The translations under genes were made by a program, and so were the position numbers. The notes beneath the pieces were generated by a model. That model was not told the DNA's origin. It did not search any database and saw only the letters and a program-made list of their open reading frames with translations. This document shows positions 3,615 through 27,793 of a stretch of 64,000 nucleotides of DNA, in pieces. Origin of the DNA: Baekduia soli (lineage in GTDB: Bacteria > Actinomycetota > Thermoleophilia > Solirubrobacterales > Solirubrobacteraceae); contig NZ_CP042430.1 of assembly GCF_007970665.1 (NCBI RefSeq), forward strand, positions 3,658,001-3,722,000, read 5' to 3'. Position 1 is the stretch's first letter; each line of letters opens with the position of its first letter.

Positions 3615-3656
3615 TGGGCCGGGGAGGACTCGAACCCCCATCAGACGGATTATGAG
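3615..3656 (-). repeat. att-type repeat 1: tRNA(CAU) 3' half, distal copy
   Basis: A 42-bp copy of the 3' half of the tRNA at 27720-27793, from the discriminator base to the anticodon loop. It differs from the tRNA at two bases, both in the variable loop. There is no matching 5' half, so it is not a tRNA gene. It marks the tRNA-distal end of element 1 and probably preserves the host's original tRNA 3' sequence. Confidence 0.85.
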
Positions 3657-3982
3657 CGCAGGAATGGGTCATTCCGCTTAGTCTCATTCGATCCGGTTTG
3701 GCTCTGCAGAGCGAAATCCTAGCACCCGTTGGGTCCCGCGAGGCCGAGTCCAAAGCTCAGACAGAGGCACGCCGGGGACAGAAACAGGGACAGAGGTCGC
3801 AAGCCTCGTCGCAACAGCCATCACTTGGTCTGGGCGAAGGCGCCTACGCCGCAGCACTCATCGCTGGAACCCGGCTCGCGATGCGTTGAGGGGATGACAG
3901 CCCGGCTGAGCGGCTGGCATTCCGCCCCTGCGGAGCCCGGTCACGGATGTCACCGGCTGCGGGTCGCGCGGCGACTCGCCGG

Positions 3983-4018
3983 GTGATCCGGGAGCGCCAC
4001 GCGACGCTCCCGGGTCAC
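3983..4018 (-). terminator. hairpin downstream of the 4032-4790 gene
   Basis: A 14-bp stem (3983-3996 with 4005-4018, one G-T pair) around an 8-nt loop, lying 14 bp past the stop codon of the leftward ferritin-like gene. No T run follows, so it is a likely but not classical intrinsic terminator. Confidence 0.55.
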
Positions 4019-4031
4019 TGGCTTGCCTGCC

Positions 4032-4790
4032 CTAAGCGTCGATGGGCGTCGGGTCCGGCGTGTTGACCTCGGCGAACGTCGGCGTGCGCGGCGTGATGTC
4101 GTCGAAGTCGAAGAACTGCCCGGGCTTGGCGCCCTTGGCCCCGAAGCCGAAGCCAGCGGCCTGCAGTGCCTTGACGGCGTCGAGGATGTCGGTGAAGTCG
4201 ACCTTCATGTAGATGCGGTCGTTGCCGAGCTGACCGAGCGACTGCAGCGCGAGTGCCCGGTGCACGGCCTCAGCGCCCATGAACTCCGCCGGCACGGCGG
4301 CGAGCTTGGGATCGGCCTTGGCGAACGCGCCGACGCCGATGAGGTAGGCGTTGACGAAGATCTGGTCGCCGGCGACCAGCGTCGTCAGGAGACCCGTCTG
4401 GCTGGCCAGCACGGCATTGGGGACCCAGATCCGCTTGGTCAGCGGTGTGGCGCCGAGCCCGATGAGCGTGTTGTAGTGCGCCAGCTCCTCCTGGGCCGCG
4501 GCGCCGATGTTGCGGCGCGTGACCTTGTCCTTAACGATCGGGCGGCGGTAGCCCAGCGTGTTGACGATCGTCGCCAGGACCTCGGCCGTCGCCGCGACGT
4601 TGAGGATCGTCTGGGTCGTGTTGTTGGGGTTGGCCGGACCCGTGGCCGCCGATGCCGCCGACGGCAGCGATCCGATGAGACCCATGCCCCCTAGCGCACC
4701 GGCCGCACCCATCATGAACTTCCGCCGCGAGTGCTCCGGGGCGCCGGTCTTGAGGACGGCCTTGTGGAGGACTTCGAGCTCTTCGGACAT
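4032..4790 (-). CDS. Tat-exported ferritin-like domain protein
   Basis: 252 aa. Residues 20-50 form a twin-arginine signal (HSRRKFMMG, hydrophobic stretch, cleavage after AASA), so the protein is exported folded. The mature part is a four-helix ferritin-like bundle: paired helices carry AAAQEELAHY and EAVHRALALQSLG, giving the E and E-x-x-H metal ligands expected for a di-iron site. It is the most divergent of the three ferritin-like proteins in this element and has a long C-terminal tail (GQFFDFDDITPRTPTF). It is transcribed leftward, away from the two related genes at 5786-7143. Role is probably iron or oxidant handling outside the membrane; this is inferred from fold only. Confidence 0.8.
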   Translation of the reverse strand: MSEELEVLHKAVLKTGAPEHSRRKFMMGAAGALGGMGLIGSLPSAASAATGPANPNNTTQTILNVAATAEVLATIVNTLGYRRPIVKDKVTRRNIGAAAQEELAHYNTLIGLGATPLTKRIWVPNAVLASQTGLLTTLVAGDQIFVNAYLIGVGAFAKADPKLAAVPAEFMGAEAVHRALALQSLGQLGNDRIYMKVDFTDILDAVKALQAAGFGFGAKGAKPGQFFDFDDITPRTPTFAEVNTPDPTPIDA

Positions 4791-4929
4791 CTGTGCTCCT
4801 TGGGTCGGATGACGCCTGGAGGGCGACCTTGCGCGTGATGACGCAGAGCTCGTCAGACCGGATCATTCGTTGGCACCTCTACGCCATCGTTGCCCCGGCA
4901 ACGGTCGCCGTGGCTGCAGCAAGGCGGAA

Positions 4930-5785: not shown

Positions 5786-6460
5786 ATGCATGACCAGGTG
5801 AGCGTCGTCGACTTCGACGGCGATGAGGCGGTGGCCGAGGCCGTCGCCGGACTGCAGGAGGCGGGATCGACCCGAGGAGCGTTCTTCCGACGTGCGGGCG
5901 CCGTGGCCGGCGCCGGCGCCGCGGCGGTGCTGCTTCCGTCGGCCGTCGCCCAGGCCCGCAGCGGCGGGTCAAAGAAGAACGACATCAAGATCCTCAACTT
6001 CGCGCTGACGCTCGAGTACCTCGAGGCCGCGTTCTACGCCGAGGCCCTGGCCGTTGGTGGCTACACGGGCTCCGTGCTGAACTTCGCCCAGGTCGTCGCC
6101 TCGCACGAGGCCACGCACGTGGCGACGCTCCAGGGCGTCCTCGGGTCCAAGGCCGTCAAGAAGCCGAGCTTCGACTTCAAGGGCACCACGCGCCACTGGC
6201 ACTCGTTCCTGCGCACCTCGAAGGTCCTCGAGGACACCGGGGTCGCCGCCTACCAGGGCCAGGCCCCGCTCATCCACCAGAACGCGGTGCTCGGGCCGGC
6301 CGGGGCGATCCTCGCCGTCGAGGCCCGCCACGCCGCGTGGGTGCGCGACCTGCTCTACGCGGGCAAGTCCGTCAAGCCCGCGCCGGAGGCGTTCAGCGTC
6401 CCCATGTCCATGTCCGAAGTCCTGAGCGCGGTCAAGAAGACCGGCTTCATCACGTCCTGA
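5786..6460 (+). CDS. ferritin-like domain protein, exported
   Basis: 224 aa from ATG 5786 with AAGGGAG immediately upstream at 5775. A signal-like segment (FFRRAGAVAGAGAAAVLL, ending SAVAQA) has an RR pair but not the full Tat consensus. The mature region is the classic actinobacterial ferritin-like bundle (Pfam Ferritin_2 type): ILNFALTLEYLEAAFYAEAL, SHEATHVATL, LEDTGVAAYQG and VEARHAAWVRDL, giving the two E-x-x-H pairs and bridging Glu of a di-iron centre. It is followed after 17 bp by a paralogue, so both probably form one transcript. Proposed role is iron storage or peroxide defence in the cell envelope. Confidence 0.85.
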   Translation: MHDQVSVVDFDGDEAVAEAVAGLQEAGSTRGAFFRRAGAVAGAGAAAVLLPSAVAQARSGGSKKNDIKILNFALTLEYLEAAFYAEALAVGGYTGSVLNFAQVVASHEATHVATLQGVLGSKAVKKPSFDFKGTTRHWHSFLRTSKVLEDTGVAAYQGQAPLIHQNAVLGPAGAILAVEARHAAWVRDLLYAGKSVKPAPEAFSVPMSMSEVLSAVKKTGFITS

Positions 6461-6477
6461 CCCGGGAGACCGACACC

Positions 6478-7143
6478 ATGTTCACCACCAAGCCCAGGGT
6501 CGATCTGTCCGGGGTCGTCGCCTTCGACCGCGACGGCGCCCTCCAGGAGACTGAAGAGCACGCCCGGCGCACCTCGCGCCGCGGCTTCCTGCGGGCCTCC
6601 GGCCTCGCCGTCGGCGGCGCGGCCGTCGCCGGCAGCGTCCTGCCCGGCACCGCCCTCGCGGCGGGCACCCCGAAGGGCGACGTCGCGATCCTCAACTTCG
6701 CGCTGACGCTCGAGTACCTGGAGACCGCGTTCTACGCCGCGGCGCTCAAGCAGGCCGACCTCAAGGGCGAGCACCTGCGGCTGGCCCGCACCGTGCACGC
6801 CCACGAGGCAGCGCACGTCGCCGCGCTGAAGAAGGCGCTGGGCTCTGCCGCGGTCAAGAAGCCCTCGTTCGACTTCGGCTCGGCCGTCGCGAGCCAGGGC
6901 GCCTTCTCCTCGACGGCCATCACGCTGGAGGACACCGGCGTGCAGGCCTACCAGGGCCAGACGCCGTTCATCCGGTCCAACGCGATCTTCAAGGCCGCCA
7001 TCTCGATCCACCCCGTCGAGGCGCGCCACGCCGCGTGGATCCGCAACATCTCCGGCCAGGCACCGGCACCCGACGCGTTCAACCCCGCGCTGACCAAGGC
7101 ACAGGTGCTCGCCGCCGTGACCGGGACCGGCTTCATCCAGTAA
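6478..7143 (+). CDS. Tat-exported ferritin-like domain protein
   Basis: 221 aa, start ATG 6478. A textbook Tat signal (TSRRGFLRASG, hydrophobic core, cleavage near GTALA) precedes a ferritin-like bundle closely similar to the preceding gene: NFALTLEYLETAFYAAAL, HAHEAAHVAALKKALG, LEDTGVQAYQGQTPF and PVEARHAAWIRN. The shared blocks show the two genes arose by duplication. Length is normal for the family. It ends the rightward pair, and 70 bp later a short leftward gene terminates. Confidence 0.88.
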   Translation: MFTTKPRVDLSGVVAFDRDGALQETEEHARRTSRRGFLRASGLAVGGAAVAGSVLPGTALAAGTPKGDVAILNFALTLEYLETAFYAAALKQADLKGEHLRLARTVHAHEAAHVAALKKALGSAAVKKPSFDFGSAVASQGAFSSTAITLEDTGVQAYQGQTPFIRSNAIFKAAISIHPVEARHAAWIRNISGQAPAPDAFNPALTKAQVLAAVTGTGFIQ

Positions 7144-7464: not shown

Positions 7465-8062
7465 GCCTTCGCCTCCAAGTATGGACCGCCACATAGTCGC
7501 ACGCCGCGTGAAACTCGCCGTGTGGCGCCTGCGAAACCGACCGACGGATCGGGTGCAGCCCGCTGCGTCCCATAGGTCACGCCTGGGCCGGCCGGCATGG
7601 ACGCTGCTCGCGCGCCACCACCCGACGGTCGGGATCGCCCACCTCCACCCCATCGGCCGACACCATCCGCCACGATCCTCGCCGCGTCCCGCACGTGCTT
7701 GATCGCCCGATATGACTCGGCAGTCGTCACGACGATGCCCTCATCGCCGATCGTCGCGCCGGTTCTGGTCGCCGCCGGGTCGCCGTCCTATCGCTTCGTG
7801 GACACCCTTCGTCGGGTGAGGGGCCCAGCACCGCCGATCGCCCAGTGACTGCGGGGTTTGACGGCCTGGCGCTGACCCCGACCACCCGCGCTCACCATGT
7901 ACTTCGTAGCGGTGGCAGAGCTCGGGTGGTCGGTGTCAGGTCCAGGCGGGACGGGCAGCGGGGCTGGCGGTGCTGGGCCCTGGAGCAGATCAGAAGCTCG
8001 AGATCTCTGTACAGCGAACCCTGAACAGAAAGAACGACAACGACAGAAGCAGACGGTGGCGC
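7465..8062. other. intergenic between divergent genes, no supported gene
   Basis: About 600 bp between the leftward 7213-7464 gene and the rightward Replic_Relax-type gene. Short frames on both strands lack recognisable features. Presumably holds the promoters for both directions. Confidence 0.4.
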
Positions 8063-8872
8063 ATGCATGACAACGAGAGAGCGGCGACAGATAGGCCGGT
8101 GGTCACGGCGGGCGATTGGCCGGTGCGACGCGGTCGGCGCGGGGTGCACGAGGAAGCGCGGGATCGGCGGTGGCTGCAGTGGATCGGCCGATTTCGGTTC
8201 GTGACCGTTGATCTGCTGGCATTGCGATTTGGCGTCAGCGTGCAGCAGGCTCGGGCCAGGGTCCGCCGTCTGGAGGGCGAGGGTCTCGTGGTGGCCGTGC
8301 GTGCGCACGTCTCAGAACCCAAGGCGATCTACCTGAGCCCCAAGGGCGCGCGGGCCATCGGACGCCGGCCGCGACGCAAGGCACCGCGGGCGGCGGTTCA
8401 GCGTGAGCACGAACTCGCCGTTGTCGAGCTCGCCGCCGGCCTCGAGCTGGCCGCGCATCCCGGTGTCGAGGTGCTCAGCGAGCGCGACTGCCAGGGCCGC
8501 GAGGCCGACGGTCTCGGTCGTTTCAGCATTGACGTCCTCGACGATCGCGGACAGAGCGGCCGTCGCTGGCCGGACCTCATCGTCTGCCAAGGCGACCGGC
8601 GGGTCGCCATCGAGATCGAGTTCGCGACCAAGGCCGCTAGCCGGCTGGCGAGCATCGTTGCTAGCTATCTCGCTAGCGAGCTCGCCGAGGTCCGCTTTCT
8701 CGTGGCCTCACCGGCGCTGGCCGCGCGCTTGGCCCGGATCACGACGATCGAGCGCGGCCGTTTGGCCAATCGTCGCATCAGCACCAACGTGGCCCTGAGC
8801 ATCGCCCCGTGGCAACACGCACCGGAAAGCGTCTACGCCGCGATCGTCCGCAGCGCCGGCGCGTACGGATAA
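8063..8872 (+). CDS. Replic_Relax-type protein (winged helix plus nuclease-like fold)
   Basis: 269 aa from ATG 8063. Residues about 35-90 form a winged helix (FRFVTVDLLALRFGVS, ARARVRRLEGEGLV), followed by YLSPKGARAIG, then REHELAVVELAAGLEL and a C-terminal domain with WPDLIVCQGDRRVAIEIE, a D-x(n)-E-I-E core like restriction-nuclease folds. This order is that of the replication-relaxation family found on actinobacterial integrative elements and plasmids, where it is thought to help plasmid-style replication or transfer initiation. Its presence supports element 1 being a mobile unit once able to replicate. The catalytic role of the nuclease-like core is unproven. Confidence 0.75.
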   Translation: MHDNERAATDRPVVTAGDWPVRRGRRGVHEEARDRRWLQWIGRFRFVTVDLLALRFGVSVQQARARVRRLEGEGLVVAVRAHVSEPKAIYLSPKGARAIGRRPRRKAPRAAVQREHELAVVELAAGLELAAHPGVEVLSERDCQGREADGLGRFSIDVLDDRGQSGRRWPDLIVCQGDRRVAIEIEFATKAASRLASIVASYLASELAEVRFLVASPALAARLARITTIERGRLANRRISTNVALSIAPWQHAPESVYAAIVRSAGAYG

Positions 8873-8914: not shown

Positions 8915-9481
8915 TCAGGCGGTGAGGTGCTCGCGGAGGCGCCTCATTCCCAGACGCATGCGACCCTTGACCGTCCCGAGGGGCAGCGTGAGCAACGTAG
9001 AGATCTCGGTGTGGCTCAGTTGGCCGAAGTAGGCCAGGGCGATGACCTCGCGCTGGGCGACCGGCAGATCGACCAGCAGGGTGCGCAGATGCTGGGCATC
9101 CGCGTCGGCCACGACGGTCCGTTCGACGTCGTCAGGCGACGGGACGACGTCGATGGCGTCGTCGAGCTGGTCGCGATGGCGGTCGTGGCGCGCGTTGCGG
9201 CGCAGGCTGTCAAGCGCACGGTGACGCACGATGCTCAAGACCCATGCCGGCACATCGGCCGTGTGCGCCTGATATTGGGCGCGCCCGCGCCAGATGGAGA
9301 CGAATCCGTCCTGCGTCGCGTCGCACGCGCGATCGGGATCGACGCAGATCGCGCGAGCCAACCGCAGTGCGCGTGGGGCCAGGCGGTCATAGAGCACGGC
9401 AAACGCCTCGGCGTCGTCGAGCTGGATGCGCTGCATCAGCTCGCGATCGGAGATCCGCGACAACCACTCGCGATCAGACAT
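8915..9481 (-). CDS. ECF-type RNA polymerase sigma factor
   Basis: 188 aa. Region 2 is seen at residues 14-90 (AFAVLYDRLAPRALRLARAI, AWVLSIVRHRALDSLRR) and region 4 at about 130-185 (LPVAQREVIALAYFGQLSHT, LPLGTVKGRMRLGMRRLREH). Size and domains are those of extracytoplasmic-function sigma factors, closest in style to the SigK/group 19 type. The ATG (9481) lies inside the end of the upstream DUF2294 gene (8-bp overlap), so the two are translationally coupled. No transmembrane anti-sigma factor is nearby, which is unusual; the DUF2294 partner may take part in control. It may drive the ferritin-like genes of the element, a guess from proximity. Confidence 0.9.
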   Translation of the reverse strand: MSDREWLSRISDRELMQRIQLDDAEAFAVLYDRLAPRALRLARAICVDPDRACDATQDGFVSIWRGRAQYQAHTADVPAWVLSIVRHRALDSLRRNARHDRHRDQLDDAIDVVPSPDDVERTVVADADAQHLRTLLVDLPVAQREVIALAYFGQLSHTEISTLLTLPLGTVKGRMRLGMRRLREHLTA

Positions 9482-9872
9482 CGACGAGGGCGGAGACCGC
9501 CGGCTCCGCTGGGTCGCGCGGCTCGAGAAAGAACAGCTCCGAGGCGATGCCGGGAGAGGTCTGGTTGGCGCTCATGAACGCCACCACCCGCCGCTGCGTC
9601 AAGCGTTCGATCGCCGCGGTGAACTCGTCCTCGGTCTCGGTCTGAAACGCAACCCGCTTGTCGATGACCGCGCCGTGAAGTCCCTCGGCGACCAGGCGCG
9701 TCTCCTCGCTGGTCAGGATGTCCTTCAGGATGCACACGACGACGTCTTCGTTGATGTACGTGATCGCCGACGTGCGGTCGTGGTCATAGACCCGTGCGTA
9801 CAGCGCGATCATCGCCGCCGAGATCGCTTCGGTCAGATCCGGGCCTTCAAGAGGAACGTCGGCGCCCTGCAT
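9474..9872 (-). CDS. DUF2294 family protein
   Basis: 132 aa from ATG 9872, AAAGG upstream. The core matches DUF2294 (older label: Na-translocating decarboxylase-related): RTSAITYINEDVVVCILKDI, LTSEETRLVAEG, FTAAIERLTQRRVVAFMSAN and GIASELFFLEP. The family is small, soluble and of unknown biochemistry, often near stress regulators. Here it is the first gene of a two-gene unit with the ECF sigma factor. Confidence 0.8.
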   Translation of the reverse strand: MQGADVPLEGPDLTEAISAAMIALYARVYDHDRTSAITYINEDVVVCILKDILTSEETRLVAEGLHGAVIDKRVAFQTETEDEFTAAIERLTQRRVVAFMSANQTSPGIASELFFLEPRDPAEPAVSALVDV

Positions 9873-10168
9873 GGCGCCTTTCTCCCGGCTCTATCGAAGG
9901 CGGACCGGTGGCCAGAGCAGAGGAGAGACCCACGACGCCGAAGGTTCGGCGTACCCAGCCCCGGCGCCTGACACGCCGCACAGAGTGCGACAGCACGCGC
10001 CCGGCCCTGTGCCGACCATTTACGGTCGAACATCTCCACGGGCGTCGCCAGTCGAACGATGTCCGACCCGCACCGGGCGAGCCAGGCGCCTTGAGGCCAA
10101 CGTCGCACGGGACGACAAGCCGCCCATCGCCCTATGGGCCATGCCCACAACGCTCTCTGGTCGCTGAC

Positions 10169-10456
10169 ATGACGCCCGGCGTCGCTCATCTCGCGGCGGC
10201 GATCGCCGCCGCGCTGGAGGACCCTGATTTCGCCGCAGTGGTCAGCCAGCAGCGCCGGTCGCCGAGCCGTCCGAGCTCGATGCTCTCCGAGCCGATGCTC
10301 GATGCCGCAACGGTCGCGGGGTTGCTGGGCATCCCCACCAAGACCGTCCACCAATATGCCCGTGAGGGTCGGCTGCCCTCCTACAAGGTCGGACGGCGCA
10401 CGATGTTCGTACGCCGTGAGGTCGAAGCGGCGGTCAGCGCGGGTCAGCTGCGCTAG
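10169..10456 (+). CDS. excisionase-type helix-turn-helix protein
   Basis: 95 aa from ATG 10169. The last 50 residues are a MerR/excisionase-like DNA-binding domain: MLDAATVAGLLGIPTKTVHQ, YAREGRLPSYKVGRRTMFVR. Such proteins steer tyrosine integrases toward excision. Its 3' end overlaps the 3' end of the integrase gene by 23 bp in convergent orientation, so transcription of one strand could interfere with the other. The N-terminal 45 residues are unremarkable; a later start is possible. Confidence 0.8.
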   Translation: MTPGVAHLAAAIAAALEDPDFAAVVSQQRRSPSRPSSMLSEPMLDAATVAGLLGIPTKTVHQYAREGRLPSYKVGRRTMFVRREVEAAVSAGQLR

Positions 10457-11855
10457 TCACCGGCGCCGCCGCGAGGTCTTCGGCGACGGGCCCGAGCTCG
10501 GTGGCAAAGACCTCGCCGAGTCGCCGCGCGGCGTCGTGCTGGGGCACGTAGTGCACGTAGCGCATCGTGGTCTTGATGTCGGCATGGCGCATCCAGCGCT
10601 GGACGTCTGACAGGGGGAAGGCCCGCACCGCCAGCGTGCCGAACGTGTGGCGCAGATCGTGAAAGCGGATCGGCGGGTGCTGCTGGCGAAGGTAGCCCAG
10701 CCCGGCCAGGGCGAGCGCTCGGTAGAACGCGTGGCGTGCCGACTCGATGTCGGCCATGCGCCCGTCGATGGCCGGAAACACGAAATCAAACTCGCCGGCG
10801 TACATCGGGTCGGCCGCAGGATCGTCGGGATCCAGCCGGCGGCGGGTCAGCGCCTCCAAGGTGCGCGCAGCCTGCGGAATGAGCGGCACCGATCCCACCC
10901 GACCGGACTTGGGCGGCTTGTCGCCAGCCGAAGCCGGCAGCGAGGCCGGGGCGTTGCGACGTACGTGTAGCACCGCCCCGGCCCAGTCGACGTCGCGCCA
11001 GCGCAGCGCACGCAGCTCGCCGAGGCGCAGCCCGGTGTAGGCCGCGATGCGAATGCACGCCGCCCAGTGCTGGGCGTTCCAGCGACGCTGCAGCGTCAGC
11101 GCGTAGGCGTGGCGGTGGGTGACGGTGGTGCGACACCGCGGGCCGGCCAGCATCGGCGTCCAGTCGGTAGCCGCCGCGCGGGCCACCGCCTCGACCTGGG
11201 CGGGCTGCAGGACATGAAACTCGCCGGTGCTCTTGGCCACCGCGACCCGCTCGGCGTCGGCCATCGGGTTGTGGGCGATGAGGCCGCGACGCTGCGCACG
11301 ACGCAGGATGCCGTTGAGCGCGATGAACAGCTGGCGGATCGAGTCGCGCGACAGCGGCCGGCCGGTGGCCGCGGTGCGCTCGCCGCGCACCAGCGCCCCG
11401 ATGTAGGCGTCGATGCGTTCGGTGGTGATCGCGCGCAGCGGCGTGCGATCACCGAAGGCGGGCACCAGATGCACGCCCACCAGGCTGCGGTAGCGGTTCA
11501 GCGTGGTGGTGGCGATCCCGCGCTCGACCTCGACATAGGACAGCCAAGCCGCGGCCGCCGCACCGAAGCTCGCGTCGGCGGCGCCCGGACGGCGAGCGAC
11601 CGGCACCGCGCGCTCGGACTCCAGCAGTACGCGCAGCGCCTCCTGGGCCTCCTTGGGGGTCAGCGAGCCTTCGGGCTTGGTGCCGTCGGCCGCTCGCCAC
11701 ACCGTGGCGCCCCTGGGGGTAGCGCGTCCGCTGTCTTTGACCCAGGCCGGCCCGAGCACCTTGCGCGTGGAGCTGCCGTCGGCGCGCCGGTACTTGGCCA
11801 CCCAGACGCGACCACGGCGGTAGGTCTCCACGCGCAGGTGGCCACTGACGTTCAC
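10434..11855 (-). CDS. tyrosine-type site-specific integrase of element 1
   Basis: 473 aa from GTG 11855, chosen for the GGAGG five bases upstream. Residues 1-75 are an arm-binding-like region (WVAKYRRADGSSTRKVLGPA, TPRGATVWRAADGT), then a core-binding SAM-like domain and the catalytic domain. The catalytic set is visible: Arg in YTGLRLGELRAL (about 275), His-x-x-Arg in FHDLRHTFGTL (about 398), His/Trp site in RWMRHADIKTTMRY, and Tyr about 431. It is homologous end to end with the integrase at 25849-27135, which explains why both elements use the same tRNA. It lies 250 bp from the att repeat at 12103. Confidence 0.93.
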   Translation of the reverse strand: MNVSGHLRVETYRRGRVWVAKYRRADGSSTRKVLGPAWVKDSGRATPRGATVWRAADGTKPEGSLTPKEAQEALRVLLESERAVPVARRPGAADASFGAAAAAWLSYVEVERGIATTTLNRYRSLVGVHLVPAFGDRTPLRAITTERIDAYIGALVRGERTAATGRPLSRDSIRQLFIALNGILRRAQRRGLIAHNPMADAERVAVAKSTGEFHVLQPAQVEAVARAAATDWTPMLAGPRCRTTVTHRHAYALTLQRRWNAQHWAACIRIAAYTGLRLGELRALRWRDVDWAGAVLHVRRNAPASLPASAGDKPPKSGRVGSVPLIPQAARTLEALTRRRLDPDDPAADPMYAGEFDFVFPAIDGRMADIESARHAFYRALALAGLGYLRQQHPPIRFHDLRHTFGTLAVRAFPLSDVQRWMRHADIKTTMRYVHYVPQHDAARRLGEVFATELGPVAEDLAAAPVTSAADPR

Positions 11856-12102
11856 CGCGGCCTCCAGGCCGACGGGCCCTCCGGGGCGTCGCACCGGGCT
11901 GCCGGCGGCGAGAGGGCGGCCACGAGAACGGGCTCGGGGGGCAGAACGGGACACGTCGGGATGACCACGTCCATGAGGGCGCTGGCCGGCGGCCATCTCC
12001 TCGCCCCTGTCCGGGCGGCTGGGGGACAGAGATCGGGGACAGAATTCGCGCTGTGACCGCCGATGGACCCCGAATATGGCTCTAGAAAGCCACAAACGAC
12101 AG

Positions 12103-12146
12103 TGGGCCGGGGAGGACTCGAACCCCCACCCGACGGATTATGAGTC
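12103..12146 (-). repeat. att-type repeat 2: tRNA(CAU) 3' half, junction of elements 1 and 2
   Basis: A 44-bp copy of the tRNA 3' half, identical to 27720-27763 except for two bases in the variable loop. It separates the two elements and would be the tRNA-proximal end of element 1 and the distal end of element 2. No 5' tRNA half adjoins it. Confidence 0.87.
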
Positions 12147-16967: not shown

Positions 16968-19900
16968 CTAGCCGCCCGACTTCTGCAGGAAAGCGTCGAG
17001 GCGCTTCTGCAGGTCCTTGTTGGGGTCGCGGGTGACGAAATCGTTGATCTTCCTCTGGAAGCGCTCTTCGTCGGTCAGTGGCCGGCGCTTCAGCTTCGTG
17101 GCGGTCGGGATGCCGACGCTGGCCTCGAGCCGGTCCCGCTGACCGGCGAGCTTGTGCTGCTTGTCGAGTAGCGCCTGGTAGGCGGGCGCGTACTGGCCGT
17201 GGTGCTTGGGGTCTTCGGCCTGTCCGAAGTCGCGCATGTGCGCGAGCTCGATGCCGACGTCGCGCAGCTCGGTCTTGACGGTCGACAGCGCTCTGGCGTC
17301 GGTCTTGTACGGAGTCGCCTTAATGCCCGTGGCGAACGCCAGCCGTGCCTGCGCGGAGGTCTGGTTGCGGGTGCCGCGGTCGGGCAGGAGCTGCTGGATA
17401 GCGAAGTTGCCTTCGGGCAGCGAGCGGACGGCGTAGTCGGTCTTGGCGTACCACGCCCAAGCCTTGTGACCGGTGTTGGGGTCGATCCAGTCGTGAGTGA
17501 CGCCGAGCTTTTTCGCCAGCCCGGGCACCGTTTCGGCGAGCACTGCGATGGCGTCGGGCGCGCGGGTGTAGGGGTGCTGTGGGTCCTGGATCTGGCCCTG
17601 GAAGAAGATGGAGTGGTTCTCGAGGATCTCGCCGACGGTCTTGAAGAACGTGACGCGGTTGGCGATGTTCTGCCACTGGTCCTGGGCGCTGGGCGAGAGC
17701 TGGTTGAGATCGGTCTGCGGCGGGGCGGCGAACAGGTTGTAGACCTTGCCGTTCCACCGGATCGGGATCGGCAGGCCGCGCTGCTCGTAATCCTTGAGCT
17801 GCGATGCGTACTCGTCATACGAGCCGAAGCCGGCGGCTTGTGCGGCCGTCGTTAGGACCTTGGAGAACGTGGCGGCTTTGCCCGGCCGGGTCAGGATCTT
17901 CATTGCCTGCAGCCGGGTGTTGCGCGCAAAGAACGTGTAGAACGGGATCACGCGGCGCGCGAAGGCTCGCTCGAACGGCGTCACGTCGCCGTAGTCGAAG
18001 TGGTGCTTGGCGACCCAGTCGGCGGCTTGGGCGGGGCTCAGGCCGCGCTTGCGAGCCGACAGGTAGGTCGCGAGCCGCGGGAGGTCCTCGCGGTACTGGG
18101 AGGCTCGTTGGATCGGGCCGGCCTTGCCGGTGAGGTCTGTGAGCTCGCGGCCGATGAAGCCCTGGCCGACCGCTCCGTGCGCCTCGGCCTCGGCGAGCAG
18201 TTCGCCGTGGGTGTAGGTCTTGTCACCGATCTTGATGTTCTTGGTCAGTCGCTTCGGTGCGGTCGCGCCGCCGGTGAAGTGCTCGGCGGAGCGCTCGGCC
18301 CGGTTGCGTACTGCGCGGGTCTCGAGGATCTGGGCGGCCTGCCTGAAGCTGTGAGCTGACGTGTCGCCCAGGAACGCGTTGAGGCTGTCGCCGTAGAGGT
18401 TGCGGAGGTGGTACGCGGGGTTCGGGACCGTGTAGGCGGTCTTCAACGCGCCCTGAGCCTTGTCGTAAATTCGTGCCGGCCCTTCGGCCGCTGCTCCGCC
18501 CCGGAGGCGCTGGGTGAGGTCGTGGACGTCGGCCAGGTGCAGCACGACGTAGCGGCCGGGGCGCTCGCCGCCGACGACCCTTGCGATCTCGGCCTTGTCG
18601 GGCTTGAGGTCGCCGCGTACATCGGTCTTGCCGACCGCCTCGAGCCCGTCGGGGTTGACCTTGTAGACCATGTCGCCATCGTGGAGGTGCAGTTCCTGGT
18701 GAGGCTCGACGGGACGGGCATGGTTGGCGACCGACTGCCAGAAGTCGTGGAGGCTCGCGCGAGCGGCTTCCTTGTTGGCCTTCTTCGCGACGATGCGCGG
18801 CAGGTCCTCAGTGAAGGGGCTATTGCCCTCCGCGCGGAGCTCGGCGAGGGTCTTGTCGATCTTGCGCGCGTGCTCCGGCGCGACGGTGACGCGGCCTCCA
18901 CCCTTGCTCTTGCCCGCCGGACCGACCATGTCCTTGTGGACGTGCGGAACGTAGTTCTCGCGGGCGGGACCGGTGAGGTCGCGCGCGGCAGCATCTGAGT
19001 GCATGCGACTGAGATCGCCGCTGATCGTCGTCGCGACATGCTGCAGGCGCACCGGCAGCTCGTCGACGGTGCCAGCCTCGATCGCATCGATGACCGACTG
19101 ATAGTCCTCGGGCTGCTGGATGGCCTTGGGGAGCGCGTGGCCGTAGCGACGCTCGATGGCCTGGGCAGCGACGTGGGTGCCGGCGCGGTGGCGCGCCTCG
19201 GCCTCGCGGAAGGCGGCGTGCTGCTCGGGGGTGCGCGTCTTGGGCCGGAAGTCGTGGATGATGGCTTTGCCGACGCCTTGGACCGGGCCGGACTCGCGGA
19301 CCTTCGTCGCGACCTTCGACGCTCCCGTCTTGCGCATCAGGTAGGAGGTGGCGCGACCGGAGGTCTTGATTTCGCCGCCGATGTCGGTCAGCGGGATGTG
19401 GCCGCGAAGACCGATCTGCAGGCCCTTGTTGAGCTCGCGCTCGAGGCCGTCGGCGGCCACCTTGCGCAGCGGGGCTCCGGTGCCGGCCGTGAGATAGGTC
19501 GTTGGGTCCGTGCCAACGTCGAGGGCAAACCCGCCGACCGTGCGCAGCGCCTTGTTGTGGACGCCGAGGTGCTGCAGGACGGTGGAGAACGTCGTCTTGT
19601 CCTTGCCCTCCAGGCCCCGTGTCAGTGCGTGGTGCGCGGACCCAACGCCCTTGCCCTGGGCGATCGCGTCGGCCGCCCCGGCGATGCCGTGAGACGGCCT
19701 AGCGACGGTGTCTAGGACCTTGACGGCGGGGGCTACTACTTTCGCCTGGATTGCAGCCTGCTGGATGCGGGTGCCGACCTTGACCGGCCGCTGACCGGTC
19801 TCCAGGAACCGGCGCATCTCCGCATCAGAGCGCGGCCGGTCGACGATCGTCTTGTCGATCGGGACGAACACCGTCTTGCGGTTCGACAGATCCAGCTGCC

Positions 19901-20201
19901 CGTTGGTCGGGGCCTGCCGCCCGTCGCTCGCGGCCTGGACGTCGTTCAGGTAGGCCTGGGTGCGCTTATAGGCAACCGCCCGGTTGCGGTCCGTGTTGCC
20001 CTTGGTGTCCTTCGCCTCCGTCTGGCGGCGACGGATCTGCTTGACCTCGCGATCGACTACGGGCTTGGCCTGGCGCATCCCGTAGTCGGCGCCGCTGGAC
20101 GCCACGTCCCCCTTCGGCGGTTTCACGACCGCGGGCTTGGCGGGCCTGCGCAGCTTCGGGGTCGCCTTGCCGGCCCCGCCGCCCGTCTCGATGCCGCGCA
20201 T
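16968..20201 (-). CDS. large phage-type protein (LPD38-like, putative internal virion protein)
   Basis: 1077 aa, start ATG 20201 overlapping the upstream stop as TAATG. The basic N-terminus leads to ALDVGTDPTTYLTAG, ENYVPHVHKD (about 420) and the block PNPAYHLRNLYGDSLNAFLG (about 610), followed by EDLPRLATYLSARKRGLSPA and RRVIPFYTFFARNTRLQ (about 770). These are hallmarks of very large polyproteins of actinobacterial and marine phages (large polyvalent protein domain 38 type), thought to lie inside the virion and enter the cell with DNA. No protease, peptidoglycan hydrolase or polymerase motif is seen. It is the strongest evidence for phage ancestry of element 2. Confidence 0.65.
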   Translation of the reverse strand: MRGIETGGGAGKATPKLRRPAKPAVVKPPKGDVASSGADYGMRQAKPVVDREVKQIRRRQTEAKDTKGNTDRNRAVAYKRTQAYLNDVQAASDGRQAPTNGQLDLSNRKTVFVPIDKTIVDRPRSDAEMRRFLETGQRPVKVGTRIQQAAIQAKVVAPAVKVLDTVARPSHGIAGAADAIAQGKGVGSAHHALTRGLEGKDKTTFSTVLQHLGVHNKALRTVGGFALDVGTDPTTYLTAGTGAPLRKVAADGLERELNKGLQIGLRGHIPLTDIGGEIKTSGRATSYLMRKTGASKVATKVRESGPVQGVGKAIIHDFRPKTRTPEQHAAFREAEARHRAGTHVAAQAIERRYGHALPKAIQQPEDYQSVIDAIEAGTVDELPVRLQHVATTISGDLSRMHSDAAARDLTGPARENYVPHVHKDMVGPAGKSKGGGRVTVAPEHARKIDKTLAELRAEGNSPFTEDLPRIVAKKANKEAARASLHDFWQSVANHARPVEPHQELHLHDGDMVYKVNPDGLEAVGKTDVRGDLKPDKAEIARVVGGERPGRYVVLHLADVHDLTQRLRGGAAAEGPARIYDKAQGALKTAYTVPNPAYHLRNLYGDSLNAFLGDTSAHSFRQAAQILETRAVRNRAERSAEHFTGGATAPKRLTKNIKIGDKTYTHGELLAEAEAHGAVGQGFIGRELTDLTGKAGPIQRASQYREDLPRLATYLSARKRGLSPAQAADWVAKHHFDYGDVTPFERAFARRVIPFYTFFARNTRLQAMKILTRPGKAATFSKVLTTAAQAAGFGSYDEYASQLKDYEQRGLPIPIRWNGKVYNLFAAPPQTDLNQLSPSAQDQWQNIANRVTFFKTVGEILENHSIFFQGQIQDPQHPYTRAPDAIAVLAETVPGLAKKLGVTHDWIDPNTGHKAWAWYAKTDYAVRSLPEGNFAIQQLLPDRGTRNQTSAQARLAFATGIKATPYKTDARALSTVKTELRDVGIELAHMRDFGQAEDPKHHGQYAPAYQALLDKQHKLAGQRDRLEASVGIPTATKLKRRPLTDEERFQRKINDFVTRDPNKDLQKRLDAFLQKSGG

Positions 20202-21616
20202 TAGCTGCCCGCCGGGTTAGCGAGCTCGCCGATCTTCTGCACCCAGCTCGAGGGCTTGGGCGGGGCGGGCTTGGCCTGCGGGAACTTCGAGACGCCGCGC
20301 TGCTTGAGTCGCTGCGTCGTCTTGGGCCCAAGGCGTCCGTCGTGCGTGGCGGCCTGTACTGCCGCGCGTGCGAGTGCGCTGTTGACGTTCTCGCTGATGA
20401 GGAAGTCGACGAGCAGGCCGGGGTCCTTGGTGAACTTGCCGCTCGTGTCAGACGACAGCGATCGATGCGCTAGGCGCAGCGCCTTGTCGAACGCATCGTT
20501 GGCGGCCTGGCGCTGACGACGCGTGTTGCCGAACTCGTCCTTGGTGTTCGCCGGTGAGGTCGAGGTCTTGTTGTCGTGAGCGATGATCGTTCGGCGTGCG
20601 TCGGGCGTCATCTTCTGCCACTCGGCGAGCGAGTACCCGTGCTTCGCGGCCACCGAGGCGGTAGCCGACGTGTCTGCAGCCTTCGGCTTTCCGGTGGACG
20701 GGTAGTAGCCGTGAGCTTGGAAGTACGCCTGGTCAGCCGCGGAGCGCGCGGTATCGGTCTTCGTCTTGGCGGTCTTTGCGGCCGTGCCCGCCGCGGTGGC
20801 CACGTTATTGGTGATCTGCGAACCGGTGAGCGCCGCCTTCAGCGCGTTGTCGGCCTCGTCGGAGAGCACCTTGTCGTGCGTCGTCGTGCGGAACGTCCCC
20901 AGGTCGCTGGCCAGCTGCTTGACCGCGGCGTCCTGCTTGTCCTGCTCGCCGCGCTGCAACCCGAAGCTGTTCAGCCCCATGTTCGTGAGGTAGTCGTTTT
21001 GGTTGGCGCCGAGCGTCTGCGCGAGTGCAGCCTGGTTCTGGATGCCCGCGGAGCGAACCGCGGCCGCCGCCTGCGCCCTGGCGGCGCCCTCTGCGTCCAT
21101 CGGTGCGCCGGCAAGCTGGCCCGTGTCGCCCTGGGCGGCGGTCGCCATTCCCTGCAGTGACGTCACCTGCTGCCCGGATGCGGTCTGCTCCGCCGCGCGC
21201 GCGGCGTTGATCTGGTCCCGGTAGGCCTGGAACCAACCCGGGAGGCTCTGGCCGCGCTGCGCAAGCGCCGCCTGCTGCGAACCGAACTGGGCCTTGGCCA
21301 TCGCATCGACGACGGCCTTGATCTGCTTGTTGGTATAGCCGGACCCAGGGGCAGCTGGAGCGTTGTTATAGGTGTTTGTCTTGCGCTGCTTCAACTGGTC
21401 GGCCGTCAGCGCGCTATCCGGCAGCTTCGACCGCAACCCAGGATGAGCGAGCCATTGCGCCAGACGGTCCCCACCCGTAGGGATACCGTGAGGCGCAGTG
21501 GCACGGGACCCTGACGACGAGAACGAACCAGGCGCCGGCCTCCCCGGCCGGCGCAGCTTGAGATTGCCCGTCGTGGGTTGCGGCCCACTGCTCGAGAACG
21601 TCGGGGGCTTACTCAT
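20201..21616 (-). CDS. phage-type structural or ejection-associated protein
   Basis: 471 aa from ATG 21616, overlapping the end of the preceding gene. Low-complexity Gln/Ala/Thr-rich sequence (AQRGQSLPGWFQAYRDQINA, GATAAQGDTGQLAG style) resembles long helical rods of phage internal or tail-associated proteins. The C-terminus has ATHDGRLGPKTTQRLKQRGV, which looks like half of a peptidoglycan-binding repeat, and ends PKPSSWVQKIGELANPAGS. Immediately precedes the 1077-aa gene, as paired ejection proteins often do. Function is inferred from context and composition only. Confidence 0.55.
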   Translation of the reverse strand: MSKPPTFSSSGPQPTTGNLKLRRPGRPAPGSFSSSGSRATAPHGIPTGGDRLAQWLAHPGLRSKLPDSALTADQLKQRKTNTYNNAPAAPGSGYTNKQIKAVVDAMAKAQFGSQQAALAQRGQSLPGWFQAYRDQINAARAAEQTASGQQVTSLQGMATAAQGDTGQLAGAPMDAEGAARAQAAAAVRSAGIQNQAALAQTLGANQNDYLTNMGLNSFGLQRGEQDKQDAAVKQLASDLGTFRTTTHDKVLSDEADNALKAALTGSQITNNVATAAGTAAKTAKTKTDTARSAADQAYFQAHGYYPSTGKPKAADTSATASVAAKHGYSLAEWQKMTPDARRTIIAHDNKTSTSPANTKDEFGNTRRQRQAANDAFDKALRLAHRSLSSDTSGKFTKDPGLLVDFLISENVNSALARAAVQAATHDGRLGPKTTQRLKQRGVSKFPQAKPAPPKPSSWVQKIGELANPAGS

Positions 21617-21953
21617 ACGTCTCAAGCTCCTTGTTGTCGAGCGCCTGCGAGATACGGACGCGGTCGGCCATGCTCAGCCGCTCGCCGCGCTGGGACTTCT
21701 CAATCAGCTCGTCGAGCTCGGCGTCGCGATCCGCGATCAAAACGGGGTCCTCGCGCTTGGCGATGTCCCTGTGCATCTCGATGCGCACGGCAAACTCCTG
21801 CTCCCGGGCGTCCCGGCTGGACGGCAGGTGCTTGAGCTCATCGAGCGCTGCCAGGATCAGGCGAGGCTGATCGATCGCTTCGGGCTCCACGGCGTAGGCG
21901 CCGGCAATCATCTGGTCGAGCTCGTCGTCGGAGTACGGCTCGAGCTCGCTCAC
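21609..21953 (-). CDS. small acidic helical phage-type protein
   Basis: 114 aa from GTG 21953, which overlaps the upstream stop as GTGA, and itself overlaps the next gene by 8 bp. Acidic, all-helical (SDDELDQMIAGAYAVEPEAI, EQEFAVRIEMHRDIAKRE, ELDELIEKSQRGERLSMADR). Such proteins before an internal-virion gene could be scaffolds or chaperones. No family recognised. Confidence 0.6.
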   Translation of the reverse strand: MSELEPYSDDELDQMIAGAYAVEPEAIDQPRLILAALDELKHLPSSRDAREQEFAVRIEMHRDIAKREDPVLIADRDAELDELIEKSQRGERLSMADRVRISQALDNKELETYE

Positions 21954-25075: not shown

Positions 25076-25561
25076 TCAAGCCGCTTCGTCCTCGAGCTCG
25101 GCCGCGGCGTCAGCTTGGCCCTGCTCGATGCCGCGGCAGGCGGCGCAGCGCATGACCCCGCCGGGATCGCGGTGGAACTGCCGGCCGCCGGCGCAGGCAC
25201 ATACCGCGCTACCTCGAGACAAGAGCTCGCGCACCGTGGCCAGCGCGGCGGGCGCCTGGTCCGGTCGGCCTTTGCGCTGGCCGGCAACCCGGGGACGGCG
25301 CGCGGTTACCTCCGTTGCGAGCTGCGCGGCGCTTGGCCGCCACTCGGCGCGGCCGCCGGACGCGAGACCGATCAGCGCCTCGTGAACGAGTTGTGGGTCG
25401 TGATGTCCAAGGACCGTGGCGTAGACGGCGAGGTCGCTGGCCAAGAGGCGCTTGGGCCAGCCCCGCTTCAACAGCGCGAAGGTGTCCCGCCAGCCGAGCG
25501 CCTCGACACGGTCCCAGTCTTCGTGACGCAGCGCGGCTACGAGCTCTTCCCGGGGTGTCAC
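25076..25561 (-). CDS. putative helicase-loader-like / replication protein
   Basis: 161 aa from GTG 25561, overlapping the excisionase stop as GTGA. Residues 15-85 (DTFALLKRGWPKRLLASDLA, LGHHDPQLVHEALIGLASGG, EWRPSAAQLATEV) have the helical layout of small phage helicase loaders, where a final 'F-x-P-x-x-x-x-L' closes the domain. The C-terminus adds a zinc ribbon-like part (CACAGG ... MRCAACRG). Position after the excisionase fits an early replication gene. The assignment is tentative. Confidence 0.45.
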   Translation of the reverse strand: MTPREELVAALRHEDWDRVEALGWRDTFALLKRGWPKRLLASDLAVYATVLGHHDPQLVHEALIGLASGGRAEWRPSAAQLATEVTARRPRVAGQRKGRPDQAPAALATVRELLSRGSAVCACAGGRQFHRDPGGVMRCAACRGIEQGQADAAAELEDEAA

Positions 25562-25758
25562 GCCGCGGTGCCCGAGAGCCAGTGCTCGATCTCGACGCGG
25601 ACGAATCGGACGCGCCGGCCGAACCGGCGACAGGGCATTCGGCCTTCTCGTGCGAACGCGAGGACCGTGGTTCCCGGGATGCCCAGAAGTTCGCCGACCT
25701 GGTCCGCGGTAAGGAGCGGCTCGTCAAGGGTGATGCGAGGTGAGTTCATGGACGGCAA
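25558..25758 (-). CDS. excisionase-type helix-turn-helix protein of element 2
   Basis: 66 aa from ATG 25758. A MerR/excisionase DNA-binding domain fills the protein: LLTADQVGELLGIPGTTVLA, FAREGRMPCRRFGRRVRFVR, VEIEHWL. It is related to the excisionase of element 1 (10169-10456). It starts the early leftward operon and is preceded by the dyad at 25807-25822. Confidence 0.8.
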   Translation of the reverse strand: MPSMNSPRITLDEPLLTADQVGELLGIPGTTVLAFAREGRMPCRRFGRRVRFVRVEIEHWLSGTAA

Positions 25759-25806
25759 AGTGAGTGCGCCTCAGGACACCTCAGCCGTCCCGTTCCCGGA
25801 AGTAGC

Positions 25807-25822
25807 GCGATAGATATATCGC
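25807..25822. promoter_or_regulatory. AT-rich dyad upstream of the excisionase gene
   Basis: GCGAT-6 bp-ATCGC with an AT-rich centre (AGATAT), 49 bp ahead of the excisionase ATG and just past the integrase stop. The only AT-rich spot in this junction, so a promoter/operator or an excisionase-binding site is plausible. Confidence 0.4.
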
Positions 25823-25848
25823 TAACGCAAACTCTTGGCGCGTTGCCG

Positions 25849-27135
25849 CTACATCATCAGTTCACCGGCTGGCGCCACCTCGATCGAAAACGCCGCGCTC
25901 AGCTTCGCTGCGACATCGTTTCGGGGGACGCTGTGCACATAGCGCATCGTGGTTGCGATGTCGGAGTGGCCCATCCAAAGCCGAACATCACTTAGCGGCG
26001 CAACCCGGACAGCCAACGAGCCAAAGCAGTGCCGGAGATCGTGCAGCCTGATGGGATTTTCCTTCGTCCGGAGGTGACCCAGGCCAGCACCGTCCAAGGC
26101 GGCATAGAACGCACGCCGCAGGTCGTTGTCGTTGAACGGCCCTCCCATCTGCGCCGGGAACACGCGGTCCCCAGGCTCGAGGAAGAACTCTCTCCGGCTG
26201 ATCGCATCGAGGGCTCGGGCAGCCTGGTCAATCAGCGGTACCGAGCGCACAAGCCCAGACTTGGGCGGCTTCTCCGACGCCCCGGCCGGCGCCGACGTCG
26301 GGGCGTTGCGCCGGACGTGCACGATCGCATGGGCGAAGTCGACGTCCTCCCACCGCAGCGCCCGGAGCTCGCCGAGGCGAAGCCCGGTGTACGCAGCAAA
26401 GCGGATCGTCGCTGCCGTCTGGTCAGCCCACGCCCGGCACTGGTCGCTCGCGTGCTGATCGCCGTCGACCGGCGCCCAGGCTCCGGCTGCCGCCCGCCCC
26501 ACCGCTTCTACCTCGGCAGGCTCGAGCACATTGAACGCGCCAGAAGCCCTCACGCGGACCTTCTCGGCCCGAGCGGCCGGATTCGCCTCCAGGAGGCCAT
26601 CCCTGACGGCGCGGCCCAGGACGCCGTGGAGCACAACCTGCGCTTGCTGCACCGTGCGCGGCGCCTTGCCCGCGTCGAGCATCGCTTCGCGGAACGCGTC
26701 GACCGTTGCCGTCGTGATGGACGCCAGGGGCGTCGCGCGGCCGATACGCGGCTCGAGATGCGTTCCGACGATGCCCTTGTAGCCCCGGTAGGTGCTCGGC
26801 TCCCGGTCCCGCTTCGCCCGGGCGAGGTAGATGTCGACCGCGTCCCCGAAGGTGGCCCCGGCGTTCTTCGCGCGCACCGCCGGCCTCGCACCCAGCAGCT
26901 CCTGGAGCGCCTGCTCGGCCATCTTGGGCGTCAGATAACCCTCAGGACAGGATCCGTCGGCCGCACGCCACACGACGGCGCCTCTGGGCGTCCTGCGGCT
27001 TGTGGGCTTGATCCACGCTGGGCCTAACGCCGTCCTGGTCCGCTTCCCATCCGCGGTCGCGTTGTGTACGGCGATCCAGCGGCGGCCGCCGCCCCAATCC
27101 TTCACCACGAGATGGCCCGTCGCCGGCTTACGCAT
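25849..27135 (-). CDS. tyrosine-type site-specific integrase of element 2
   Basis: 428 aa from ATG 27135, which overlaps the upstream gene's stop by 8 bp; a longer frame to 27219 has no homology at its start. Arm-binding-like N-terminus (GHLVVKDWGGGRRWIAVHNA, TPRGAVVWRAADGS), core-binding domain, then the catalytic domain with Arg in YTGLRLGELRAL (about 252), LHDLRHCFGSL (about 365), MGHSDIATTMRYVHS with His and nucleophile Tyr (about 398). Homologous throughout to the element 1 integrase. It lies next to the tRNA attachment site, separated only by one small gene. Confidence 0.94.
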   Translation of the reverse strand: MRKPATGHLVVKDWGGGRRWIAVHNATADGKRTRTALGPAWIKPTSRRTPRGAVVWRAADGSCPEGYLTPKMAEQALQELLGARPAVRAKNAGATFGDAVDIYLARAKRDREPSTYRGYKGIVGTHLEPRIGRATPLASITTATVDAFREAMLDAGKAPRTVQQAQVVLHGVLGRAVRDGLLEANPAARAEKVRVRASGAFNVLEPAEVEAVGRAAAGAWAPVDGDQHASDQCRAWADQTAATIRFAAYTGLRLGELRALRWEDVDFAHAIVHVRRNAPTSAPAGASEKPPKSGLVRSVPLIDQAARALDAISRREFFLEPGDRVFPAQMGGPFNDNDLRRAFYAALDGAGLGHLRTKENPIRLHDLRHCFGSLAVRVAPLSDVRLWMGHSDIATTMRYVHSVPRNDVAAKLSAAFSIEVAPAGELMM

Positions 27136-27565
27136 CGTCGCCAGGCGTCCAGCCAGAGCGAATGACCTCAGGGAGAAGCTCTCCCACCCAGCCCCCCATG
27201 GCGGCCGAGGTTCGGACAAAGGCCGCGCTTGCGATTCGATCTGGGATCTGGACGCCGAGGTAGACGGCGCCCGGCACCTCCCACGCTAGGTCGATCACCC
27301 CACCGTCCGGTCCCGTGAGCCATGCGTGCGCGATGGGGTGGCCGACAAGGCCGGCGGAGACCGCGACGCCCTCGGTGTAGGTGACGCTCGGATCTCTCAT
27401 CCAGCGCTGCGCGGAGGCGTAGCACCCGTGCGGCTTCTTGTTCCGTCGACGCCCCCACCCCGTGGGAACGGGCCGGCCTGCCTGCTCCCGCCCGTGGTCG
27501 ATGAGGAAGCGCTCGAGCTCCCTGATCTCTGCCATCGGGGCAATCATCGTCTTCACGTCATGCAT
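27128..27565 (-). CDS. small protein with Cys-His-Asp order (papain/transglutaminase-like?)
   Basis: 145 aa from ATG 27565, GAGG five bases upstream. After a helical, Arg/Lys-rich N-terminus come KPHGCYASAQRWMRD (Cys about 50), HPIAHAWLTGPDGGVIDLAW (His and Asp about 83-94) and VYLGVQIPD. Cys, then His in 'HAW', then Asp in 'V-I-D-L-A-W' is the order of papain-like and transglutaminase-like catalytic triads and recurs in short phage proteins of unknown function. The gene lies between the tRNA attachment site and the integrase, and is coupled to the integrase. Catalysis is a prediction only. Confidence 0.6.
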   Translation of the reverse strand: MHDVKTMIAPMAEIRELERFLIDHGREQAGRPVPTGWGRRRNKKPHGCYASAQRWMRDPSVTYTEGVAVSAGLVGHPIAHAWLTGPDGGVIDLAWEVPGAVYLGVQIPDRIASAAFVRTSAAMGGWVGELLPEVIRSGWTPGDDA

Positions 27566-27719
27566 GACGTCCTCTCGGTCGCGCCCCCTTGTCGATTGGG
27601 CGCCGATTGCGGGGCCTGAGACACAGCCCCGGGCAACTAAGCCACAGGATTTAAGAACAGGTCGACGACGGAACCGCATGGTCGGCGCAGAAAGCGGGAC
27701 GTTTGCAGGGAAATCCTGA

Positions 27720-27793
27720 TGGGCCGGGGAGGACTCGAACCCCCACCAAACGGATTATGAGTCCGCTGCTCTACCCGGTTGAGCTACCGGCCC
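27720..27793 (-). tRNA. tRNA with CAU anticodon (Met, or Ile2 if lysidine-modified)
   Basis: 74 nt with full cloverleaf: acceptor GGGCCGG/CCGGCCC, D stem GCTC/GAGC, anticodon stem GCGGA/TCCGT with loop CTCATAA (anticodon CAU), T stem GGGGG/CCTCC and loop TTCGAGT, discriminator A. CCA is not encoded. C4-G69 and C5-G68 are compatible with TilS recognition, so the isoleucine-AUA type is possible; elongator methionine is equally so. Its 3' half (27720-27763) is the attachment site used by both integrative elements. Confidence 0.93.

What the first reader, a model, noticed from the sequence alone, without database searches (positions are those of the whole stretch)
3615..27793. Two related integrative elements stacked in tandem on one tRNA gene
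The 3' half of the CAU tRNA occurs three times (3615, 12103, 27720), each following a tyrosine integrase or host sequence, and the two integrases are homologous end to end. This is direct evidence of repeated insertion at one site. Geometry implies element 1 went in first and was pushed outward by element 2. Tandem accretion lets the outer element be mobilised by the inner one's integrase, or both together.
Basis: partly seen in the sequence, partly recalled or inferred. Interest (0 to 1): 0.75.

Follow-up and report, generated by a model that had tools for sequence, protein, structure and literature searches.

The report
Two mobile elements stacked on tRNA-Met
Two separately acquired mobile DNA elements have inserted one beside the other into the same tRNA gene of an actinobacterium, each apparently bringing its own copy of the tRNA's second half; it is a clear example of a known process that recurs in this bacterial order.

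Summary
An intact tRNA-Met(CAU) (27720-27793, minus) is followed by two more copies of its 3' half, at 12103-12146 (42/44) and 3614-3656 (41/43); shuffles reach at most 28/42 against 40/42. Each interval has its own tyrosine integrase at its tRNA-proximal end: int2 (25849-27219) and int1 (10434-12095), 52-54% identical. All copies start in or just before the anticodon loop and end at the tRNA 3' end. Among 80 relatives of these integrases, 38 lie behind an intact tRNA and 5 behind a displaced half; two relatives show the same two-integrase stack. This is tandem accretion by anticodon-loop integrases, a catalogued process. Corrections: int1 and int2 are not recovered as sisters, so the elements probably arrived independently; both insertion orders give the same map, so 'element 1 first' is likely, not proven; the outer copy has a fourth, orphan twin 2.57 Mb away. 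The inner element (15.6 kb) is phage-derived, without recognised terminase, portal or head genes; the outer (8.5 kb) carries ferritin-like, sigma-factor and Replic_Relax genes. The tRNA's present 3' half probably came from the inner element, and the outermost copy looks native. Excision could not be tested.

The parts
27720..27793 (-). intact tRNA-Met(CAU), the target gene; its 3' half (27720-27761) is read as supplied by the inner element
   Evidence: ARAGORN; variable-loop comparison
12103..12146 (-). middle copy of the tRNA 3' half: junction between inner and outer element
   Evidence: 42/44 identity
3614..3656 (-). outermost copy of the tRNA 3' half: far end of the outer element, native-like variable loop
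   Evidence: 41/43 identity
25849..27219 (-). int2, tyrosine integrase of the inner element (start probably near 27135)
   Evidence: PF00589 E 7.7e-23
10434..12095 (-). int1, tyrosine integrase of the outer element (true start downstream, near 11852)
   Evidence: PF00589 E 1.5e-19; 54% identity to int2
25558..25758 (-). HTH_17 / excisionase-like protein of the inner element
   Evidence: PF12728 E 1.9e-9; phrog_66 E 9e-7
9794..10456 (+). ORF whose C-terminal part is an HTH_17 excisionase-like domain, outer element, opposed to int1
   Evidence: PF12728 E 1e-8 residues 168-212; homologues beside related integrases
7970..8872 (+). Replic_Relax protein, outer element
   Evidence: PF13814 E 2.1e-8; 71% homologue by the tRNA-Arg(ACG) integrase of the same genome
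5678..6460 (+). Ferritin_2 protein, cargo of the outer element (true start downstream)
   Evidence: PF13668 E 6e-44
6337..7143 (+). second Ferritin_2 protein (true start downstream)
   Evidence: PF13668 E 2.5e-42
8915..9481 (-). ECF-type sigma factor, outer element
   Evidence: PF04542 E 8.5e-14
9474..9872 (-). MpsC-family protein, outer element
   Evidence: PF10057 E 5.7e-12
16968..20201 (-). 1077-aa protein related to late genes of tailed phages, inner element
20201..21625 (-). 474-aa ORF next to it, no family match
15454..16149 (-). RES-domain protein, inner element
   Evidence: PF08808 E 4.5e-14
3601..3795 (+). block around the outermost copy, 86% identical to G000:C1:1090966-1091159 (minus)

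Best explanation
Two site-specific integrative elements of separate origin stand in tandem on one tRNA-Met(CAU) gene. [quoted passage not shown] The incoming half replaces the resident one, so the tRNA stays intact and the old half moves outward to the element's far end. Layout: tRNA 5' half + 3' half from the inner element; inner element (15.6 kb, phage-derived); 3' half from the outer element; outer element (8.5 kb, ferritin-like cargo); native 3' half. Shown: the copies, the two integrases, the start of the copies at the anticodon loop, and the same layout in relatives. Inferred: the crossover point, which half is native, the order (outer element first, about 0.7), and any present mobility.
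For: Repeats and chance control; integrases; copies starting at tRNA position 31-33 in the window, and at 25-33 for the full-length ones in 4 of 14 other tRNAs tested, and at 30-32 in the 4 of 41 named loci with a second copy in view; 38 of 80 family integrases behind an intact tRNA and 5 of 80 behind a displaced half; same two-integrase stacks in Conexibacter sp. S30A1 (tRNA-Lys) and Solirubrobacteraceae YX3bin6 (tRNA-Met) and an integrase remnant beyond the outer copy at another tRNA-Met of YX3bin6; native-like variable loop only in the outermost copy and its orphan twin; GC3 of the named element genes 0.79-0.92 against 0.96-0.99 for five host genes right of the tRNA.
Against: No base-exact empty site: the region downstream of the tRNA differs among relatives. 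10 of 15 tRNAs tested showed no second copy in the stretches fetched, and 29 of 80 loci had neither tRNA nor half upstream. The outermost copy lies in blocks shared with a locus 2.57 Mb away, so its outer flank may not be plain chromosome. The native-half argument rests on two bases.
Confidence: 0.9

Rival explanations
1. Same structure, opposite order: the phage-derived inner element entered first, and the ferritin element later integrated into its far att site.
For: Both orders give the identical final map and the same pattern of halves.
Against: Only the tRNA copy keeps a fully symmetric core, 5 of 5 stem pairs, against 2 of 5 (middle) and 3 of 5 (outer); literature scenarios have the newcomer entering the att site that includes the target gene (PMC5704250, passages).
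Confidence: 0.25
2. The outermost copy is not the native half but the tRNA-side end of a third, older, mostly deleted element; the stack had three layers.
For: Blocks left of 3614 recur at 1091 kb (3468-3556, 97%); YX3bin6 shows just such a cut-down older layer with a 25-codon integrase remnant.
Against: No integrase remnant (E 0.05 limit, 26 integrases) in window 1-3614, in the next 20 kb or beside the 1091-kb copy; arm comparison of the outer flank found only the 1091-kb copy.
Confidence: 0.2
3. One element duplicated in tandem and diverged.
For: Both have the same kind of integrase and an HTH_17 excisionase-like gene.
Against: I found no other shared gene; integrases are 52-54% identical and not recovered as sisters, and a tRNA-Gly integrase (L076) is as close to int2 as int1 is.
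Confidence: 0.04

Closest known systems
Genomic islands in tRNA genes with anticodon-centred crossover and their tandem arrays (Islander, PMC4383910; passages seen)
   Same: Intact tRNA at one end, displaced 3' fragment in the same orientation at the other, integrase in each interval; tandem arrays are defined by each island having its own integrase and fragment (125 tandems of two or more among 3919 islands; 2083 anticodon-centred).
   Different: Nothing in principle; new host order, and sequence differences between the halves allow a guess at which element supplied which.
Tandem accretion of IMEs, ICEs and CIMEs (review PMC5704250; passages seen)
   Same: A newcomer integrates at the att site holding the target gene end next to a resident element; integrases of similar specificity but distant relation.
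   Different: Conjugative mobilisation is central there; no conjugation genes were recognised here, and excision is untested.
Tandem ssrA islands of Dehalococcoides (PMC3146451; passages seen)
   Same: Several islands in a row behind one RNA gene, each bounded by a copy of its 3' end.
   Different: Serine recombinase and T-loop site there; tyrosine integrase and anticodon loop here.
Prophage of G001 (3176-3196 kb) and Microbacterium phage Shocker
   Same: The large late protein of the inner element is 31-33% identical to G001's 1216-aa protein and 26% over a fifth of its length to Shocker gp37.
   Different: G001's prophage has terminase, portal and major head protein matches; none was recognised in the inner element.

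Membership tests
tRNA-targeted integrative island, anticodon-centred | intact tRNA gene at one end and a displaced same-orientation fragment at the other | tested here: met
tRNA-targeted integrative island, anticodon-centred | integrase gene inside, next to the tRNA-proximal end | tested here: met
tRNA-targeted integrative island, anticodon-centred | shared core begins at the anticodon loop | tested here: met
   positions 31-33; crossover itself not observed
tandem array (Islander definition) | each member has its own integrase and its own tRNA fragment | tested here: met
accretion with joint mobilisation | excision of single elements and of the composite | not testable with these tools
   no reads or experiments
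integrative conjugative element (either element) | recognisable conjugation or translocase genes | tested here: not met
   no such Pfam family among the element ORFs scanned (short ORFs not all scanned); only a sub-cut-off MobC-type match of the Replic_Relax protein, 24.9 bits against 200
complete tailed-phage prophage (inner element) | terminase, portal and major head protein | tested here: not met
   20 inner ORFs against PHROGs, no head or packaging match
phage satellite (inner element) | mobilisation by a helper phage | not testable with these tools
   no induction data

The most novel reading that the evidence does not exclude
The inner element is a capsid-less phage satellite whose integrase also recombines the outermost site, so that it can carry the ferritin element out as a 24.1-kb composite; and in this bacterial order one integrase clade keeps rebuilding host tRNA genes from imported 3' halves and lays down layer upon layer at them.
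Probability: 0.15. Interest if true: 0.55.

Novelty: new member of a known kind. Interest (0 to 1): 0.3.

Why it matters
It documents tandem accretion in Solirubrobacterales with just enough sequence difference between the copies to suggest which tRNA half came from which element. It also points to an integrase clade found next to tRNAs for Met, Lys, Thr, Arg, Gly and Asn, a natural series for studying how integrases change their tRNA target and how islands pile up at one gene.

Tried and rejected
Chance repeat: rejected by Markov shuffles and the whole-genome search. Duplication of one element: disfavoured. Defence island: no PADLOC match for 10 inner-element ORFs. Inner element on plasmids: no megablast match. 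The 156-aa and 101-aa ORFs (22549-23019, 23019-23324) had no match in the phage records; the 156-aa one had none confirmed in IMG/VR, the 101-aa one two. A genome-collection scan with the 1077-aa protein confirmed no relative, although whole-genome search then found G001 and G005. The acetamidase gene left of the stack was found in none of 6 other genomes of the genus at E 1e-60, so it could not anchor an empty site. A third stacked element left of 3614 was sought and not found; kept as a rival. That the orphan twin at 1091 kb proves a moved composite was dropped: left block 97%, core 100% and inner arm 82% differ in divergence, and their spacing differs. Structure prediction was not run.
Full report
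What is there. The window is 3,658,001-3,722,000 of a 5.21-Mb single-contig genome. Named records of related integrases are titled Solirubrobacterales, Solirubrobacteraceae, Conexibacter, Paraconexibacter, Solirubrobacter, Thermoleophilaceae or unspecific Actinomycetota/Actinomycetes/bacterium, with one MAG labelled Bifidobacterium breve (best 80 of 272 loci kept), and several of them are the same contigs as genomes given as same family or order, so I place the host in Solirubrobacterales; the species was not identified. An intact tRNA-Met(CAU) lies at 27720-27793 minus. Its 3' half recurs at 12103-12146 (42/44) and 3614-3656 (41/43), same orientation. In 100 Markov-shuffled windows the best match to the 42-mer was 28, against 40 for each copy. 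Genome-wide there is one further copy of this strength, at 1,091,104-1,091,146 minus.

Integration site. 20 neighbourhoods of tRNA matches in relatives were fetched; 18 hold tRNA-Met and two tRNA-Lys. In 17 of the 20, window genes to the right of the tRNA matched; of ORFs from the two elements only the integrases matched, in G008, G062 and G032, each next to the tRNA (E 1e-8 and 70 bits; G062's integrase is split over two frames). Downstream, relatives differ: in G005 the genes read here by eye as RpiR/pdxS follow about 0.9 kb after the tRNA, in G001 other genes intervene, and in the window's genome they lie about 40 kb from the tRNA. The site is variable and no base-exact empty site was found.

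Anticodon-loop rule. The window's copies begin at tRNA position 31-33 and end at the tRNA 3' end. I tested 15 tRNAs beside 14 integrase loci, the window's included. Five had a second copy: the window; G008 Met (33-74, 100%); G009 Gly (25-74, 100%); G062 Arg(CCG) (32-74, 98%, plus a shorter 43-74, 94%); G000 Gly(CCC) (32-73, 100%). Ten had none of that kind in the stretches fetched. In the named set 41 of 80 loci had a tRNA within 1.2 kb; four of the 41 had a second copy in the stretch held, all starting at position 30-32. By a stricter rule 38 of 80 have an intact tRNA upstream in the integrase's orientation, 5 of 80 (L165, L171, L199, L207, L222) a displaced half instead, 8 are cut by the contig end and 29 have neither.

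Stacks elsewhere. L170 and L171 lie on one chromosome (Conexibacter sp. S30A1): intact tRNA-Lys at 2,345,606-2,345,679 with an integrase, and a 43-bp 100% half at 2,282,874-2,282,916 with another, 98.8% identical over 339 aa. L204 and L207 lie on one contig of Solirubrobacteraceae YX3bin6: intact tRNA-Met at 51,914-51,988 and a 42-bp 100% half at 67,770-67,811, integrases 62% identical. At a different tRNA-Met of YX3bin6 (G008) the displaced half is followed by a 25-codon remnant of its integrase (92%) and arm DNA 88% and 87% identical: an older layer cut down.

Which half came from where. With a crossover in the anticodon loop each insertion donates its own 3' half to the tRNA and pushes the previous one outward. 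The three halves differ only in the variable loop: TTGGT (tRNA), CGGGT (middle), CTGAT (outer). The four same-genus tRNAs examined (of six other genomes of the genus) read CCGAT, CAGAT, CAGAT and CAGAT; the fourth base is A in 13 of 18 relatives. The outer copy is thus the native-like one. This rests on two bases, and some of the 18 relatives carry elements themselves, so it is supportive, not proof. Both insertion orders give this pattern. Core symmetry favours the tRNA as target: the five bases on either side of the loop pair 5 of 5 at the tRNA, 2 of 5 at the middle and 3 of 5 at the outer copy.

The two elements. Outer (3615-12103): int1, an opposed HTH_17 excisionase-like domain, Replic_Relax, ECF sigma factor, MpsC-family protein, two Ferritin_2 genes; its Replic_Relax protein has a 71% homologue beside the tRNA-Arg(ACG) integrase of the same genome. 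Inner (12103-27720): int2, an HTH_17 excisionase-like gene, a RES-domain gene and a run of ORFs led by a 1077-aa protein. That protein is 31-33% identical to a 1216-aa one in G001, whose neighbours match PHROG terminase, portal and major head protein; it is more weakly related to Shocker gp37 (26% over a fifth of the query), which lies directly before the endolysin genes, to one IMG/VR contig (26%) and to a G005 gene (27%) about 6.5 kb from a related integrase. Only G000, G001 and G005 of 232 genomes of the order had it at E 1e-8. Twenty inner ORFs against PHROGs gave no head or packaging match. I read it as a defective prophage or a satellite. No conjugation family was met among the ORFs scanned against Pfam. 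The named element genes have GC3 of 0.79-0.92, five host genes right of the tRNA 0.96-0.99.

Kinship of the integrases. In a 26-row tree int1 and int2 are not recovered as sisters: int1 falls with a tRNA-Gly integrase, L089 and the L009/Arg/Asn group at 87/89 (not starred), int2 outside it, both on long branches; the root is for drawing only. The pair probably reflects two arrivals, not a duplication.

The fourth copy. At 1,091 kb the half lies in a 195-bp block 86% identical to window 3601-3795. The core is identical, the arm inside the element 82% over 139 bp, and an 89-bp block (97%) matches 3468-3556 but at another spacing and starting at the TA next to what looks by eye like an IS630 element. 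In 232 genomes of the order, matches outside the window's genome were limited to the tRNA core region of the query (two candidates scored per genome). I read it as a fossil end of a relative of the outer element; how it got there is unexplained.

Comparison with the known. Islander (PMC4383910, passages) defines this very structure: restored gene, displaced fragment, integrase, and tandem arrays when each island has its own fragment and integrase (125 tandems, 3919 islands). The IME review (PMC5704250, passages) and the Dehalococcoides ssrA islands (PMC3146451, passages) describe the same accretion logic. One search with Solirubrobacter among five terms (three required) gave ten listed papers, none of which held that word (listing only). 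The finding is a clean new instance of a known process.

Noticed in passing
G000:C1:1090966-1091488 (L003 9967-10489): Orphan fourth copy of the tRNA-Met 3' half with the outer element's end arm, 2.57 Mb away, beside an IS630-like element (by eye, L003 about 10487-11606).
   Followed up: partly
L199 4930-5880 (Paraconexibacter antarcticus NZ_CP098502.1): Three different tRNA 3' halves in a row (closest to Met 95%, Thr 89%, Arg 100%) within about 1 kb upstream of one integrase.
   Followed up: partly
G000:C1 about 2152.7-2157.9 kb (L011, L136): A further small element of the same integrase family on tRNA-Gly(CCC) in the window's genome, with a 42-bp 100% repeat of the tRNA 3' half.
   Followed up: no
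G232:C1:2282915-2283031 and 2297344-2297460 (Conexibacter sp. S30A1): The element-end arm beside the displaced tRNA-Lys half has a 91% copy (118 bp) 14.4 kb away inside the inner region, perhaps the trace of another layer.
   Followed up: no
window 15013-15426: Short ORF with a weak match to integrases of phrog_95 (E 1.5e-4) and a sub-cut-off Recombinase match, perhaps a fragment of another integration gene.
   Followed up: no
window 3565-3599: 35 bp just outside the outermost copy, 86% identical to a place at 2180.4 kb that reads by eye like a STAS-domain gene, so the left flank is itself patchy.
   Followed up: partly
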